Shown here: one piece after another, positions 1-6,439 of the stretch
How positions within the stretch are numbered: position 1 is the stretch's first letter
How the letters are laid out: the number at the start of each line of letters is the position of its first letter
Source of the DNA: Sulfuricella sp.
GTDB taxonomy: Bacteria > Pseudomonadota > Gammaproteobacteria > Burkholderiales > Sulfuricellaceae
Length of the DNA stretch: 64,000 nt
Reading direction: 5' to 3'
Assembly: GCA_028713975.1 (NCBI GenBank)
Contig: JAQTNE010000001.1
Coordinates: 1 to 64,000 of the forward strand
Made by a program: the position numbers and the translations under genes
The notes under the pieces: generated by a model
What the model saw: the letters and a program-made list of their open reading frames with translations, nothing else
Database searches by the model: none
Told to the model about the DNA's origin: nothing

Positions 1-3
1 CTC

Positions 4-71
4 GCATGCATGACGCTTCCCCCTTCGACGTTTGGTCACCGAGATGGAGGTCTTATCGGCGTCATGCATGC
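4..71. repeat. 13-bp perfect inverted repeat at window edge
   Basis: The arms GCATGCATGACGC (4-16) and GCGTCATGCATGC (59-71) are exact reverse complements separated by 42 bases. No ORF of note covers it. It lies just outside the restriction island, so it could be a mobile-element end, an attachment-like site or an operator. The window stops too soon to tell. The rest of 72-175 shows nothing I can name. Confidence 0.45.
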
Positions 72-175
72 ACGACTTGAGATGTAACTTGTTGAATAAC
101 AATGATCGTTTGCGGGGAAACCTCAGCGACCGTCTTCGATAAAGTTGGTGTCAGACTGAATTAGGTAGCGCGAGA

Positions 176-798: not shown

Positions 799-1947
799 CT
801 ACGCAAAGGTTCGGTGAAGCAGCGCGTTGAAGGTGGCCTCGGCCTTCTGTGTCGCCGCGACCTGTTGTGTCTGGATAGAGAGAGCATCTTGATAGTAGCG
901 CTCGAAAACCACCTGTATATCGAGAGGTGGTACTGGAATGTCCAATCCTTTCATGATTCCAACATTGACGATGCTCATCGTCCCACCATGCGAAACCGAT
1001 TCAATCCGCTCGCGCATACTGTCGCCCGTGAGTAGCGCCTTCATAAACAAGGGCAGGGCTCTTGATCGGTCAAGAGTAATCTTCATTAAGCGCGGATTGA
1101 TGATACCTGGCTCGAACTGTTCAGGAACAATGCTGATTTTTCCGAATGTCCCGACCAAGCTAATGAGAAGATCGTGAGCTTGAAGTCGGCAGTTTTCGAG
1201 TTTGCGATATTTTTCTTCCGAGATGTAATAGTCCCCATAGCTCAAATCATCTCGAATCACTTGTTCTTGCCCGTATATTTTGTAACCGGTAGGAACATAG
1301 AACGCCTTCTTCAACGCTGAACCAAACGGCCCGGCCTTGATCGCAAATTTCTCCTTGGCAGCAAGTTCACCGAGCTTCACAACCGGCCACCCCTTCGGAT
1401 TCGTCACCGGATCGCCAAATAGTTCGAGGAACAGGGCCGGAATCAGCTCCGCCGCCTTCTTCTGCGCCTCGCGCCGCAGGCGGACGATGCCCTCGGCACG
1501 GGAGAGAATATCGACGATGCGGCGTTGCTCGTCGAGTGGTGGTATTGGTAGTTCGATATTTTGTATTTGCTTGGCTGAGATGTGCTTCACGGTCACGAAA
1601 GATGTGGTGTCTTCGATTTCCCGCAATTTCTTTGCGATGCCGTAATAGATATATTCTGGTTCGACAGACGCATTGAAGTTGCGTAAACGGCAGACCCGCT
1701 GATTTAGTAAAGCACGCGGCCCTTGCCAGCGAAAGCAACGAAAATTGCCGTCCATGCCAATTAGGTAGCTGCCCTGTTCGACGATGAACTCTTCCCTGTA
1801 TTTCCCCCGATAATTGATTTCTGTGGATGCATTCGGCAGATCACGAATACGGATAAGCGGCATCTCCGCATCCGGGGTGAAATATTCAGTTTTGAAGGCA
1901 AAACCAGATTGCACTTCCAAGACCTCTCCAAGTCTGACGCTTGGCAT
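799..1947 (-). CDS. hsdS: Type I restriction-modification specificity subunit HsdS
   Basis: This is the DNA-recognition subunit that joins two HsdM chains and, with HsdR, forms the restriction complex. It has two target-recognition domains in tandem, each ending in the family's signature before a coiled-coil spacer: LPIPPLDEQRRIVDIL (first) and IPVPPLDIQVVFERYY (second). Helical spacers (LRREAQKKAAELIPALF and TQQVAATQKAEATFNALL) follow, as expected for HsdS. The length (382 residues) is normal. The ORF opens with TTG at 1971. ATG 1962 is possible, but ATG 1947 sits in TGATATG immediately after the hsdM stop, nine bases behind a GGAG, so I chose it. The bipartite target sequence cannot be read from the protein by eye. 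Confidence 0.93.
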   Translation of the reverse strand: MPSVRLGEVLEVQSGFAFKTEYFTPDAEMPLIRIRDLPNASTEINYRGKYREEFIVEQGSYLIGMDGNFRCFRWQGPRALLNQRVCRLRNFNASVEPEYIYYGIAKKLREIEDTTSFVTVKHISAKQIQNIELPIPPLDEQRRIVDILSRAEGIVRLRREAQKKAAELIPALFLELFGDPVTNPKGWPVVKLGELAAKEKFAIKAGPFGSALKKAFYVPTGYKIYGQEQVIRDDLSYGDYYISEEKYRKLENCRLQAHDLLISLVGTFGKISIVPEQFEPGIINPRLMKITLDRSRALPLFMKALLTGDSMRERIESVSHGGTMSIVNVGIMKGLDIPVPPLDIQVVFERYYQDALSIQTQQVAATQKAEATFNALLHRTFA

Positions 1948-1948
1948 A

Positions 1949-3829
1949 TCAGACGACTCCATCTTGTTCAATCAACGCCGCCCGCAATGCCTCCACCTCT
2001 TCCACAATCTCCGCCTCAATCGCCGCCAGCTCGTCCAGCAGCTCACGCGGATCGCGATGCTCGACCGCCTCTTGGCTCATGGGCCGGTAGCGCCCCGCCG
2101 ACAAGTTGAAGTCGTTGGCACGGATTTCACTGACATCGGCAAACCACCATTTATGGGGCCAGTTTTTTGGCCCCTCGATACGCCCGCTTTGCGGGCTACT
2201 CGGGGCGAACGGTGGGATACTCTGAGCCGTTCGCCCTGAGTAGGCTTCGGCGGTTTTGGCCGAAGCCGTATCGAAGGGCTGCGCACTTGAGGAACCCCGC
2301 TCACCCTTCGATACGCCAGCCTCCGGCTGACTACTCAGGGCGAACGGGGTTTTCCATGCTTGCCAATCGGCCCAGCGTTCGTCCATGTGCCGGTAGATAT
2401 CCAGCAGGCCGGGCAGGTCGTCGGCCTCGATGGGCGTATCGTGGTTGGCGTCCAGCTTGTAGCCGTCGTTATCGGCATGCAGGAACAGTACGCGCTCAGT
2501 ACAGAGACCCGTTCGTAAAGACCCTTCGACAAGCTCAGGGCGAACGGGAACTGTGGGTTTGCTGAAAAACAGCACCGATGTCTTCACGCCCGAATAGGGC
2601 TGGAACACGCCGCCGGGCAGGCTCATGACGGCCTCGACGCGGTTGTTCTCGATTAGTTGCCGCCGCAGTTCCTTATGCGCGCCGGTGGAGCCGAATAGCA
2701 CGCCCTCGGGCACGATCACGCCGCAGCGTCCGCCTGGCCGCAGACTGTCCATCATGTATTTGAGAAACAGCAGCTCGGTCGCGGTGGAGGTGCCAACCTT
2801 CACTTCCTCGACCACGCGATCCTTGTCCACCCGGCCCGCGAATGGCGGATTGGCGAGCACGACATGATAGCCCTCGGCGGGGATGCCCAGCTCGGCCCGC
2901 TGTTCGGGGTCTAGCGTGGTGGTCATCACATTCCGCAGCAGGATGCGAACATTCGCCAACCCGCGCAGGGTGAGGTTCATGGTGGCGAGCCGCACCATCT
3001 TGGGATCGACATCGTTGCCGAAGAAGGTGGCTGTTTGCAGGGCGGAAACCTGCGCGGCGGAGAGCTTGTCGCCCAAGCCGCGCCGCAGCATCTTGCCCCT
3101 TCGACCAAGCTCAGGACAGGCGTCCATGTCCACTTCCTGAATCGCGGTGGGCGAGGAATTGACAAGGCGGATGTGGTTGTAGGCCGCCACCAGAAAGCCC
3201 GCCGTACCCGCTGCCGGATCGTAAATGGTTTCGCCGACCTTGGGGGCTATCATTTCGACAATGGCGCGGATGATGTGGCGCGGCGTGCGAAACTGGCCCA
3301 GCTCGCCTGCCTGCTTGATCTGGCGCAGCACATGCTCGAACAGGTCGCCCTTGGTATCGGAATCGGATTGATCCAGCCGTAGGCCATCGACCAGGCTGAC
3401 GACCTGGGTCAGCACGGTAGGCTCGTCGATGGACAGACGCGCACCGTTCATGAAATTGTTCGCGGCACACTCGCCCAACTCGGCGAAGAAGGCGAACACC
3501 TCGTCGCGCACGAACCGCACCAACGCTTCGCCGGATAGCCCTTTGGCCCACACCGACCAGCGGAAGCGGTCGCGGGGGATGGTTTTTACATCGGGGGCCG
3601 GTGCGTTAAGCGGGTTTCTCAGCGTCCACTCGCCTGTGAACAGGTTCTCATAGGGCTGTTTCAGCACCTTGGCCTTCAAGGCATTTTCGGTGTCGATGCC
3701 TTCCACCAGATAGAAGAAGAACAGGAACGAAAGCTGCTCGGCGTTGCTCACCGGGTCGGGGTAGCCGCCGCCGAAGAGGTAGTCGCGAATCTGGTCGATT
3801 GACCGCCGCATTTCGGGGGTCAGGGGCAT
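1949..3829 (-). CDS. hsdM: Type I RM N6-adenine methyltransferase HsdM with repeat insertions
   Basis: Methyltransferase subunit. It has the HsdM N-terminal helical domain, the SAM-binding motif DPAAGTAGF (204-212) and the N6-adenine catalytic motif NPPF (327-330). The C-terminal helical region (LLDELAAIEAEIVEEVEALRAAL) contacts HsdS. At 626 residues it is longer than usual for this subfamily. Part of the excess is three low-similarity stretches encoded by palindromic repeats: ACPELGRRGK (about 237-246), VRPELVEGSLRTG (about 426-438) and a longer block with KGERGSSSAQPFDTASAK and SSPQSGRIEG (about 497-555). All keep the frame and avoid the catalytic motifs, so the enzyme may still work. AAGGA lies upstream of ATG 3829. 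It is co-directional with hsdR, the GIY-YIG gene and hsdS. Confidence 0.93.
   Translation of the reverse strand: MPLTPEMRRSIDQIRDYLFGGGYPDPVSNAEQLSFLFFFYLVEGIDTENALKAKVLKQPYENLFTGEWTLRNPLNAPAPDVKTIPRDRFRWSVWAKGLSGEALVRFVRDEVFAFFAELGECAANNFMNGARLSIDEPTVLTQVVSLVDGLRLDQSDSDTKGDLFEHVLRQIKQAGELGQFRTPRHIIRAIVEMIAPKVGETIYDPAAGTAGFLVAAYNHIRLVNSSPTAIQEVDMDACPELGRRGKMLRRGLGDKLSAAQVSALQTATFFGNDVDPKMVRLATMNLTLRGLANVRILLRNVMTTTLDPEQRAELGIPAEGYHVVLANPPFAGRVDKDRVVEEVKVGTSTATELLFLKYMMDSLRPGGRCGVIVPEGVLFGSTGAHKELRRQLIENNRVEAVMSLPGGVFQPYSGVKTSVLFFSKPTVPVRPELVEGSLRTGLCTERVLFLHADNDGYKLDANHDTPIEADDLPGLLDIYRHMDERWADWQAWKTPFALSSQPEAGVSKGERGSSSAQPFDTASAKTAEAYSGRTAQSIPPFAPSSPQSGRIEGPKNWPHKWWFADVSEIRANDFNLSAGRYRPMSQEAVEHRDPRELLDELAAIEAEIVEEVEALRAALIEQDGVV
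2171..2350. repeat. Compound palindromic repeat inside hsdM (three half-units)
   Basis: Three copies of a unit of the form CCCTTCGATACG, a short hairpin, then CTACTCAGGGCGAACGG lie in a row. Copies one (about 2174-2213) and two (about 2227-2279) are inverted to each other. The third (about 2303-2348) points like the first. The inner hairpins differ (CCCGCTTTGCGGG; GGCTTCGG/CCGAAGCC; CCAGCCTCCGGCTG), while the outer ends are conserved. The block is open in the hsdM frame and encodes about 58 extra residues. Confidence 0.85.
2507..2552. repeat. Palindromic repeat unit inside hsdM (RPELVEG type)
   Basis: The sequence CCCTTCGACAAGCTCAGGGC followed by GAACGG is the short form of the same repeat family, preceded by an inverted CCGTTCG. 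On the hsdM strand it is read as VRPELVEGS, a reading of this repeat seen in many proteobacterial proteins. It adds about a dozen residues between a beta strand (VLFFSKP) and VLFLHADNDGY. Confidence 0.8.
3097..3122. repeat. Divergent palindromic repeat unit inside hsdM
   Basis: The sequence CCCCTTCGACCAAGCTCAGG is a diverged short unit of the same family as 2507-2552. One extra base changes the reading frame used, so it is translated as CPELGRRG rather than RPELVEG while hsdM stays open. It lies between the SAM-binding motif and the next strand of the methyltransferase fold. Confidence 0.6.
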
Positions 3830-3867
3830 AGCGTCATTCCTTGTTTAGTTTTTTCATCATATCCTCG

Positions 3868-3962
3868 ATACGCCCGCCAGGCGGGCTACTCGGGACGAAC
3901 GGTTGAGGTGGTAATGGCCGTTCGTGGTGAGTAGCGCGCATCGCGCGCGTATCGAACCATGT
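3868..3962. repeat. Two-armed palindromic repeat between GIY-YIG gene and hsdM
   Basis: The left arm, CCTCGATACG, hairpin CCCGCCAGGCGGG, CTACTCGGGACGAACGG, is followed after a short spacer by an inverted right arm, CCGTTCGTGGTGAGTAG, hairpin CGCGCATCGCGCG, CGTATCGAACC. This is the intergenic full-length form of the element found inside hsdM. It fills most of the 154-base gap and could form a long cruciform or an mRNA hairpin. Confidence 0.85.
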
Positions 3963-3983: not shown

Positions 3984-4283
3984 TCACCCTTGCTTCTTCT
4001 TCGTGAAATCTTTTTTAGCCAACTGGGATACCTTTCCCCAATCCCCACGCATCATGGCCTCCTTCTTCTTGCGTCCCCAGCCTTTTATCTGTAATTCCGC
4101 CGCCAATGCCTCTTCGCGGGCGGCGCATTCTTGCGACCAGGCAAGCTCGATTGGCAGACGGGTTGCCGTGTAGCCGCCACATGCGCCAGTTTGGTGTTCG
4201 CCGATGCGTTTCTCCAGATTGTCGGTGTGTCCCGTGTAGTAAGAATCGTCGGCACAGCGCAGGATGTAAACCCAAAACGTCAT
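3984..4283 (-). CDS. GIY-YIG nuclease-superfamily protein (UPF0213-like)
   Basis: A 99-residue single-domain protein. The GIY-YIG core starts with VYILRCADDSYYTGHTDNLEKRIGEH, giving the two tyrosine motifs, the helix arginine and a histidine, and the acidic helix follows (EECAAREEALAAELQIKGWGR). This matches stand-alone UPF0213 / YhbQ-like proteins, which are structure-specific or damage-related nucleases or of unknown role. Its ATG overlaps the hsdR stop in ATGA, so it is translationally coupled to hsdR and sits between hsdR and hsdM. The lysine-rich C-terminus (KKDFTKKKQG) may bind nucleic acid. Whether it takes part in restriction is unknown. Confidence 0.85.
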   Translation of the reverse strand: MTFWVYILRCADDSYYTGHTDNLEKRIGEHQTGACGGYTATRLPIELAWSQECAAREEALAAELQIKGWGRKKKEAMMRGDWGKVSQLAKKDFTKKKQG

Positions 4284-6439
4284 TTCATGACATCTCTGAT
4301 GACGTTCTGTGCTTGTCTGGGCTTGTCCGTCGGTATGCCGATCTCTCCATCAAATACTGCGGCGTTGAGACTATCGAGCAAGGCATCGAGCCGGGCTTCG
4401 CTGCCGAAGACGCGCACCGCCTGCGGCACGCCGCCAAGCTGGGAGAAGGGGTGGAAAGCAAAGTGGCCGGTGCTGAACTCGTCCATGGTGTCGGCGTTGG
4501 CCCGTATCTGGCTGCCGATCATGCGCAGCCAGCGCTCCGCGTCGGCGGTCAACTCCTGCTGGGCCAGCAGCCACGCCTCGAAGCGGGCGCCCAACTCGGC
4601 GGCTTTCAGCTCGGAGGCTTCGGGGAAAACCATGTTGCCGTTTTCATCGACGGTGATCCATTCTCGCGTGGTTGGGTCGATGTGGTCGTCGATGTCCAGC
4701 GACAGCAAGCGGCGCGGCTCGTATTTCTTTTTCGCGGATTTGGCGAGCACGACGCCGCCCTCGGCCAGTTCGTCATCATCGCCGTGGTAGTCGGCCACGC
4801 CCACGAAGTCGAACAAGGTAAACACCGACTTGCCCGGTATCTTGCGCGTGCCGCGTCCGCGCATCTGCTGGTAGAGAATGGCAGAACGGGTGAAGCGGGC
4901 AAACACCAGACTGACCACCTCCGGGCAATCAAAGCCGGTGTCGAGCATGTTCACCGAAACCAGAATCTGCGGAAACTTTTCGCGTTTGAAACGCTTGATC
5001 TTGGTCATGCCGTCCACGGTGTCCTCACTCGACCCCATGCCGGACACGACATAATCGGCATAGCGCACCTCGGGCGAATCCTTCTTGTCGCGGAAAGCCT
5101 CATCAAAAAGCTGGGCCAGCGTTTCGGCATGGCGTTTGTTGACGGCGAAAACGATGGTCTTGCCGATCAGGGGTTTCCTGAGCACGCCCTTGCGGTCGGT
5201 GTAACCGTTTTCCAGCACTTGGCGAAACTCGCGCACGATGGCCCGGTTGCGTTCCGGGATGGTGAAGCGGCGTTCCAGGGCGGAAGGATCGACGACGATG
5301 CTCTCCTGACCTTCAAACAGCTTTTCCAACTCGATGCGAGTTGCCTTATCCATGGCTGTCCAGTCCAGCTCGTTGCGCTTGACTGGAAAGCCGCCTTCGG
5401 CGGCGGTCTTGACGGTCTTGGCCTTGAACACCTGATAGGGGGCGAGATAGCCGTCGTGGATGGCGTCTTTCAGCTTGTAGCTGTAGGTGGGCTTGTCCAC
5501 CTCGAAAAACCGCAAGGTATCGCGCACGAACAGCTTGTCTTCCTCGTCGCTGCCCAGCTCGTCGAGGTTGGATACGCACGGCGTGGCGGTCAGGCCGACC
5601 TGGATGCCGTCGAAGTGTTTGAGCACCCCGCTCCATTTGCCATAGATGCTGCGGTGGCATTCGTCGGAAATGATCAGGTCGAAGTAGCCGGAGGAATAGT
5701 CGCTATAAATGTTCACCATGCTTTGCAGCGTGGTGATGGTGATAAGCTTTTCATCCTGAAAGCGGCGACCGGCGCGCAGCACGTAGGCGGGATAGTCGCT
5801 CAGGTGCTCGGCAAAGGCATCCTCGGTCTGCTTGGCAAGCGGAATGCGATCCACCAGAAACAGCACGCGGGTGATGGCGTTGGCCTCGAACAGCCGCTTG
5901 ATGAAGGCGGCGGCGGTGCGGGTCTTGCCGGTGCCGGTCGCCATTTCGACCAGCAGCTTGCGCCGGCCTTGGACGATTTCGATGCACAGGGCGTTGATGC
6001 ACTCTTCCTGATAATCGCGTCCGGCGATGCGTGCATCAATTTGCACCGACAGCAGGTCGCGCCGCACTTGCCGGGTGGCAAAGCGCCGTTCAAGATCATC
6101 CTGCTTGAAGAAAGTTTTGACGGGATGGGGGAAGGCTTCACTCTCCCATTCCCAGAAGCGCACTTCGTCGCCATTGGAAAGAAAGATATAGGGAACGCCA
6201 AGCTGCCGGGCGTAATTCCTGGCCTGCTCGGCGGCATCGCCCGGATTCACCGAAAACCGCTTGGCCTCGATGACTGCCATCGAGCGGCCATGCCGGTCGC
6301 ACAGCACATAATCGGCACGCGTGCCGTCCTCAATCACCACTTCATAGCGGACACTGTTCGGGTCTTGCGTGTTCCAGCCTTGGTCGGCGAGCTGGGCGTC
6401 GATGACGACGCGGGAAAAGGCTTCGTTGGTGTTTTTCAT
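4280..6439 (-). CDS. hsdR: Type I restriction endonuclease/translocase subunit HsdR
   Basis: The motor and nuclease subunit of the type I complex, cutting unmethylated DNA after ATP-driven translocation. The N-terminal HSDR_N nuclease domain shows the PD-(D/E)xK pattern D43...E58-A-K60. The SF2 helicase core has GTGKT (169-173), DECH (259-262), TATP (284-287) and the later helicase motif QMRGRGTRKIPGKS. The C-terminal domain resembles the EcoEI R family. The length, 719 residues, is complete and open. It begins 46 bases after nudF on the same strand with no strong ribosome site or promoter seen, so it may be read through from the nuo/nudF transcript or have a weak promoter of its own. Confidence 0.95.
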   Translation of the reverse strand: MKNTNEAFSRVVIDAQLADQGWNTQDPNSVRYEVVIEDGTRADYVLCDRHGRSMAVIEAKRFSVNPGDAAEQARNYARQLGVPYIFLSNGDEVRFWEWESEAFPHPVKTFFKQDDLERRFATRQVRRDLLSVQIDARIAGRDYQEECINALCIEIVQGRRKLLVEMATGTGKTRTAAAFIKRLFEANAITRVLFLVDRIPLAKQTEDAFAEHLSDYPAYVLRAGRRFQDEKLITITTLQSMVNIYSDYSSGYFDLIISDECHRSIYGKWSGVLKHFDGIQVGLTATPCVSNLDELGSDEEDKLFVRDTLRFFEVDKPTYSYKLKDAIHDGYLAPYQVFKAKTVKTAAEGGFPVKRNELDWTAMDKATRIELEKLFEGQESIVVDPSALERRFTIPERNRAIVREFRQVLENGYTDRKGVLRKPLIGKTIVFAVNKRHAETLAQLFDEAFRDKKDSPEVRYADYVVSGMGSSEDTVDGMTKIKRFKREKFPQILVSVNMLDTGFDCPEVVSLVFARFTRSAILYQQMRGRGTRKIPGKSVFTLFDFVGVADYHGDDDELAEGGVVLAKSAKKKYEPRRLLSLDIDDHIDPTTREWITVDENGNMVFPEASELKAAELGARFEAWLLAQQELTADAERWLRMIGSQIRANADTMDEFSTGHFAFHPFSQLGGVPQAVRVFGSEARLDALLDSLNAAVFDGEIGIPTDKPRQAQNVIRDVMK

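What the first reader, a model, noticed from the sequence alone, without database searches (positions are those of the whole stretch)
2171..3122. Palindromic repeats inserted in frame at several sites of hsdM
At least three separate sites in hsdM carry units of one palindromic family, at one site as a three-unit block. All stay in frame and add roughly 80 residues outside the catalytic motifs. The same family occurs just upstream of hsdM. This resembles protein-coding palindromic elements such as those of Rickettsia. A restriction methyltransferase tolerating repeated insertion, in different reading registers (RPELVEG and CPELGRRG), is a good case for studying how new linker peptides arise.
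Basis: partly seen in the sequence, partly recalled or inferred. Interest (0 to 1): 0.6.

Follow-up and report, generated by a model that had tools for sequence, protein, structure and literature searches.

The report
Palindromic repeats inside methyltransferase gene loops
Short mobile-looking palindromic DNA repeats have been inserted in frame, several times and at the same few loops, into the DNA-methylating subunit of a bacterial restriction system; the kind of event is known, but this gene is hit repeatedly, by three different repeat families, in different species.

Summary
HsdM (window 3829-1949, minus strand, 626 aa) carries five repeat units at three sites. They add 8, about 16 and about 59 residues that close homologues lack, all in frame and all in predicted disordered loops away from the catalytic motifs. 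An ancestral pair of the same hairpins lies just upstream. The units are GTAG-type REP elements, and in-frame intragenic REPs are already described (Di Nocera 2013, PMC3733652). The comparison with Rickettsia elements is right as an analogy, not as membership. One detail is wrong: RPELVEG and CPELGRRG start in the same register; the second is a loop-length variant that shifts half-way. The units truly read in another register are those of the three-unit block.

The partner HsdR of the same operons shows one such insert. In the window genome, every detected copy of the family lies at hsdM. The best explanation is repeated REP insertion filtered by selection for in-frame, loop-located survivors. 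Why copies persist only at hsdM in three genomes is unexplained.

The parts
1949..3829 (-). hsdM, type I restriction-modification N6-adenine methyltransferase subunit, 626 aa, uninterrupted
   Evidence: Pfam N6_Mtase E 7e-50; PDB relatives 5ybb, 2okc, 3ufb by sequence and fold
3098..3121 (-). site B: single 24-nt unit GCCTGTCCTGAGCTTGGTCGAAGG = ACPELGRR (residues 237-244)
   Evidence: absent from all other homologues; only copy in genome; pLDDT < 50 at 238-243; the same unit in HsdR of L064
2516..2563 (-). site D: insert SKPTVPVRPELVEGSL (residues 423-438) with core CCCGTTCGCCCTGAGCTTGTCGAAGGG at 2522-2547, closed by CGAACGGG
   Evidence: empty in most homologues, other units of the family in L039 and L053; fold z -3.2; pLDDT < 50 at 430-440
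2177..2353 (-). site E: 59-residue block (residues 493-551) made of three hairpin units in alternating orientation
   Evidence: pLDDT < 50 at 497-552
2304..2347 (-). site E unit c, GTAG hairpin, encodes PFALSSQPEAGVSK
2227..2278 (+). site E unit b, GTAG hairpin in opposite orientation; hsdM strand encodes PFDTASAKTAEAYSGRT
2171..2212 (-). site E unit a, GTAG hairpin, encodes PFAPSSPQSGRIEG; same site and subfamily as the unit in G010
3863..3903 (-). upstream hairpin unit, between the GIY-YIG gene and hsdM
   Evidence: conserved in G005 and G010
3918..3955 (+). upstream hairpin unit, inverted partner
   Evidence: conserved in G005; partner of 3863-3903
4280..6439 (-). hsdR, 719 aa, control subunit without palindromic insert
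   Evidence: Pfam ResIII, HSDR_N, EcoEI_R_C
799..1971 (-). hsdS, specificity subunit with two Methylase_S stretches
3984..4283 (-). GIY-YIG domain gene between hsdR and hsdM, conserved in place in the genus

Best explanation
The sites are insertions of small non-autonomous palindromic elements: GTAG-type REPs in this genome, two other palindromic families in relatives. The elements land at many places. Copies persist in hsdM only where their total length is a multiple of three, the frame read has no stop, and the peptide falls in a flexible surface loop or in the linker before the C-terminal HsdS-binding helices. HsdM has about five such loops, so the same loops are filled again and again in different species. 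Shown: the elements, the empty sites, in-frame gain, recurrence at the same sites, disorder in the model, contrast with HsdR. Inferred: that a transposase such as a RAYT moved them, that the enzyme is still active, and that the peptides are tolerated rather than useful.
For: Empty sites in homologues at 72-87% identity. In 90 homologues, palindromic inserts at five sites, 29 carriers, fewest changes on the gene tree 4+1+6+3+10 = 24. Site E holds three unrelated families (GTAG-type; CCCTCTCCC..GGGAGAGGG; CCCGCGAAGGCGGG), so shared descent cannot explain it. HsdR of the same operons has one palindromic insert in 81 sequences; P about 3e-8 for 24 of 25 falling in HsdM given length. 24 random events never fall in five or fewer 25-residue clusters, even if limited to coil. 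Hosts with inserts of the second family often hold large dispersed populations of it: 93, 95, 48 and 79 copies in four. Inserts lie in segments with pLDDT < 50. Nearly all carriers keep a full-length frame. dN/dS is 0.05-0.18, including 0.055 and 0.048 for pairs in which both members carry inserts. Ordinary non-palindromic indels also occur at site A, as expected of a tolerant loop.
Against: In three genomes the family's detected copies lie only at hsdM, which plain random insertion plus tolerance does not predict. The RAYT of the window genome is flanked by a different REP family. Insert DNA folds better than 95% of same-length stretches of the same gene in about 15 of 29 cases, so short units are called by sequence alone. 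Parsimony counts do not separate gain from loss, and the tree is a quick one.
Confidence: 0.87

Rival explanations
1. The inserts are selected, not only tolerated: they diversify exposed loops of HsdM, for example to escape phage anti-restriction proteins that bind the methyltransferase, or their mRNA hairpins tune the amount of HsdM relative to HsdR.
For: Strong bias for HsdM over HsdR in the same operons; repeated filling of the same loops; in three genomes the family survives only at this locus.
Against: Site, family, orientation and length differ between close relatives, which argues against a fixed peptide or RNA function; ordinary indels also occur at site A; the bias is expected if HsdM simply has longer flexible loops.
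Confidence: 0.1
2. The hsd cassette, or hsdM alone, was imported from a repeat-rich bacterium and brought the palindromes with it.
For: The family is absent from the rest of the window genome and of G005 while genomes such as G009 and G195 are rich in it.
Against: The cassette sits in the same place (nuoM-nuoN-nudix-hsdR-GIY-YIG-hsdM-hsdS) in window, G005, G010 and G006, with identities like those of the neighbouring genes (82-92%); the upstream hairpins are shared. GC of the cassette is like the rest. Exchange of short hsdM segments is not excluded.
Confidence: 0.15
3. The residues are an original part of this HsdM subfamily that most homologues lost.
For: Parsimony change counts alone cannot tell gain from loss.
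Against: Each site is filled in a minority and by unrelated repeat families; empty homologues align without scars; the inserted DNA matches dispersed repeats of other genomes and, for the second family, of the hosts themselves.
Confidence: 0.02
4. hsdM is a decaying gene in which insertions accumulate without cost.
For: Relatives with broken copies exist (L041 lacks the N-terminal half; L105 lacks the first 51 residues).
Against: Window hsdM, hsdR and hsdS are all full length with intact motifs; inserts are in frame in essentially all carriers; dN/dS 0.05-0.18.
Confidence: 0.06

Closest known systems
GTAG-tagged REP elements inside genes (Di Nocera, De Gregorio and Rocco 2013, PMC3733652)
   Same: Small hairpins with GTAG next to the stem, single, paired or grouped; in-frame inside genes of Opitutus, Thauera and others; clusters coding for 43-82 aa; two insertions in one gene (uvrA); different REPs at about the same site of recB in two Xanthomonas species.
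   Different: Restriction or methyltransferase genes are not mentioned in the main text. Here one gene has five recurrent sites filled by three unrelated palindromic families across many genera, and the family is confined to this locus in the window genome.
Rickettsia palindromic elements (RPE; Ogata 2002, Claverie and Ogata 2003, known here through PMC3733652)
   Same: Palindromic elements inserted in frame into functional genes, presumed to lie in surface loops.
   Different: RPE-related repeats of R. conorii carry a CGTC tag and belong to other families; no sequence relation was claimed or tested here.
REPINs and RAYT transposases
   Same: GTAG hairpins in inverted pairs, as upstream of hsdM; RAYT genes present in the genus.
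   Different: The window's RAYT is flanked by another REP (GTAGGAGCGGCGCC...); G005 has the hsdM repeats but no detected RAYT.

Membership tests
GTAG-type REP elements | 20-50 bp palindrome forming a hairpin | tested here: met
   six of seven window units fold with z of -1.0 to -3.2; the short site B unit does not, z +1.2
GTAG-type REP elements | GTAG tetranucleotide at one end of the stem | tested here: met
   five hairpin units read GAGTAG-stem-CGTATCGA; the short units at sites B and D lack it (CCTGAGC)
GTAG-type REP elements | high copy number, dispersed over the genome | tested here: not met
   in the window genome all detected copies lie at hsdM; met in relatives such as G009 (47) and G195 (82), so the family as such qualifies, the local population does not
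GTAG-type REP elements | a RAYT gene flanked by the same repeat | tested here: not met
   one RAYT of the window genome is flanked by a different GTAG repeat, the other showed no inverted repeats; RAYTs of relatives were checked only at three loci
Rickettsia palindromic elements | in-frame insertion in functional protein genes | tested here: met
Rickettsia palindromic elements | sequence family membership, CGTC tag | tested here: not met
   the tag here is GTAG; Rickettsia sequences themselves were not aligned
Type I restriction-modification HsdM | N6-adenine methyltransferase domain with DPxxGxxxF and NPPF motifs, in an operon with hsdS and hsdR | tested here: met
Type I restriction-modification HsdM | methylates a bipartite target | not testable with these tools
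   needs native-DNA sequencing

The most novel reading that the evidence does not exclude
hsdM is a preferred and maintained home for palindromic elements rather than just a tolerant one: elements from unrelated families are kept in its loops because they diversify the methyltransferase surface or its expression, or because the locus acts as a refuge from which a repeat family that has died out elsewhere in the genome persists and spreads locally.
Probability: 0.12. Interest if true: 0.75.

Novelty: new member of a known kind. Interest (0 to 1): 0.47.

Why it matters
It gives a well-replicated natural experiment on how mobile palindromes create new protein linkers. One protein has five loops, about two dozen mostly independent insertions, three repeat families, and closely related empty alleles to compare with. 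Because methylation by type I systems can be read from native DNA, the effect of each insert on enzyme activity is directly measurable. The concentration of the repeats at one defence gene, in genomes otherwise free of them, also asks how such repeat families persist.

Tried and rejected
Recent import of the whole cassette with its repeats looked attractive after but was given up when the locus proved syntenic and normally diverged in three relatives. The idea that CPELGRRG arose by a one-base slip in this genome was dropped because the same loop variant is dispersed in many genomes and occurs, read in the same frame, in the HsdR of a Gallionella. Local duplication of one unit as source of all was not supported: stems of the units differ, apart from unit a and the upstream unit at 3863. 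Folding energy alone does not recognise the short units against the GC-rich gene. One genus search used a wrong spacing and was repeated. Searching papers for the peptide or repeat letters found nothing relevant.

Full report
Observation. The window carries a type I restriction-modification operon on the minus strand: hsdR (4280-6439), a GIY-YIG gene (3984-4283), hsdM (1949-3829) and hsdS (799-1971). HsdM has a strong N6_Mtase match and solved relatives such as 5ybb, 2okc and 3ufb. Seven repeat units of one family lie within window 2171-3955, five inside hsdM and two upstream. Hairpin units read CCGTTCGYCCYGAGTAG-stem-CGTATCGARGG. Short units read CCTGAGC-loop-GTCGAAGG. Six of the seven fold better than shuffled sequence to some degree; the 24-nt unit at site B does not.

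Empty sites. Seven HsdM homologues at 72-86% identity align with gaps exactly at the repeats. The window has +8 residues after 236, about +16 at 423-438 and about +59 at 493-551; the empty homologue L034 has 541 residues against 626. Catalytic motifs are outside the inserts. In the AlphaFold2 model, made with 46 sequences, mean pLDDT is 72.5, and the segments below 50 include 238-243, 430-440 and 497-552, that is, the three inserts.

Registers. RPELVEG and CPELGRRG both read CCT GAG CTT. The second has one more base in the loop and so shifts in its second half. That loop variant is common: it occurs in 12 of 100 related genomes (one mismatch allowed) and encodes ACPEQGRR in the HsdR of locus L064. 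The truly different registers are those of the site E units, read PFALSSQPEAGVSK and PFAPSSPQSGRIEG, and on the other strand of the unit PFDTASAKTAEAYSGRT. For these, the register used at site D would meet the TAG of GTAG as a stop.

Recurrence. In 90 HsdM sequences, palindromic inserts occur at five sites only: A (after residue 77), B (237-244), C (364-365), D (423-443) and E (490-552). Three unrelated families are involved: F1, the family of the window; F2, CCCTCTCCC..GGGAGAGGG (PSPSTGEGRGG, FSPRPQAGEGQG); F3, CCGGCGAAGGCCGG or CCCGCGAAGGCGGG. Site A has F1 and F3, C has F2, D has F1, and E has all three. On a maximum-likelihood gene tree built without the inserts, the fewest changes are 4, 1, 6, 3 and 10. 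Thiobacillus sp. 65-29 (L053) has A, D and E filled, and G006 (L039) at least D and E, with masked sequence near A. Many F2 carriers live in genomes with dozens of dispersed F2 copies (93, 95, 48, 79 and 30 in five of them; as few as 1-10 in others).

Control. HsdR from the same operons, 81 sequences and 710 core positions, has one palindromic insert. Given lengths, 24 of 25 in HsdM has P about 3e-8. If only distinct family-by-site combinations are counted (roughly 9 of 10), P is about 0.003. Random placement, even in coil only, never gave as few as five clusters in 20,000 draws. Site A also shows ordinary, non-palindromic length variation in Variovorax and others, so a tolerant loop is the simplest cause.

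Selection. Core dN/dS between window and relatives is 0.10-0.18. Pairs in which both members carry inserts give 0.055 (L054-L055) and 0.048 (L059-L060). Nearly all carriers keep the whole frame. L105 and L041 are truncated. Detection of loci did not require an open frame, so frame-shifting insertions would have been seen in part; some bias from the ORF step remains.

Origin of the repeats in this genome. All detected copies of the family in the 2.33-Mb assembly lie at hsdM. The same holds for G005, a 99%-complete genome in two contigs, and, for the exact short pattern, for Thiobacillus sp. 65-29. The cassette is nevertheless at the same nuoM-nuoN-nudix position in window, G005, G010 and G006, with identities like those of its neighbours, and the upstream hairpins are conserved in G005 and G010. 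So the repeats are long-standing residents of this locus. Whether they are relics of a family lost elsewhere, local spread, or gene conversion from repeat-rich relatives is open. A RAYT of the window genome is flanked by a different GTAG repeat.

Comparison with the literature. Di Nocera and co-workers described GTAG and CGTC REPs, in-frame intragenic copies, clusters coding for 43-82 residues, double insertion in uvrA, and different REPs at about the same site of recB in two Xanthomonas (PMC3733652). Restriction genes are not mentioned in its main text; its supplement could not be read. The present case is therefore a new, unusually rich member of a known kind. Recurrence by several unrelated families at fixed loops of HsdM, and confinement to that locus, are the parts I did not find described.

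Noticed in passing
window 3984-4283 (-); L138, L139, L140: A GIY-YIG domain gene sits between hsdR and hsdM and is kept in that place in three relatives (85-89% identity), as if part of the cassette.
   Followed up: partly
L142 (G000:C3:139900-142300): A RAYT transposase of the window genome is flanked by its own GTAG repeat (GTAGGAGCGGCGCC...), unrelated to the hsdM family.
   Followed up: partly
L064, hsdR: HsdR of Gallionella sp. STB_67 carries ACPEQGRR, the same 24-nt unit in the same frame as site B of the window HsdM; its HsdM carries long inserts of another family at sites C and E.
   Followed up: partly
G005, G419 (Thiobacillus sp. 65-29), window genome: The F1 palindrome family is found only at hsdM in three genomes; not explained.
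   Followed up: partly
window 2153-2172: A further short inverted repeat, GGGGCCAGTTTTTTGGCCCC, adjoins unit a inside hsdM.
   Followed up: no
L041 (G001) and L105 (Sedimenticola): Truncated hsdM copies: N-terminal half missing, and first 51 residues out of frame or missing.
   Followed up: no
window 1-80: Near-palindromic CATGCATGACG...CGTCATGCATG at the very end of the contig.
   Followed up: no
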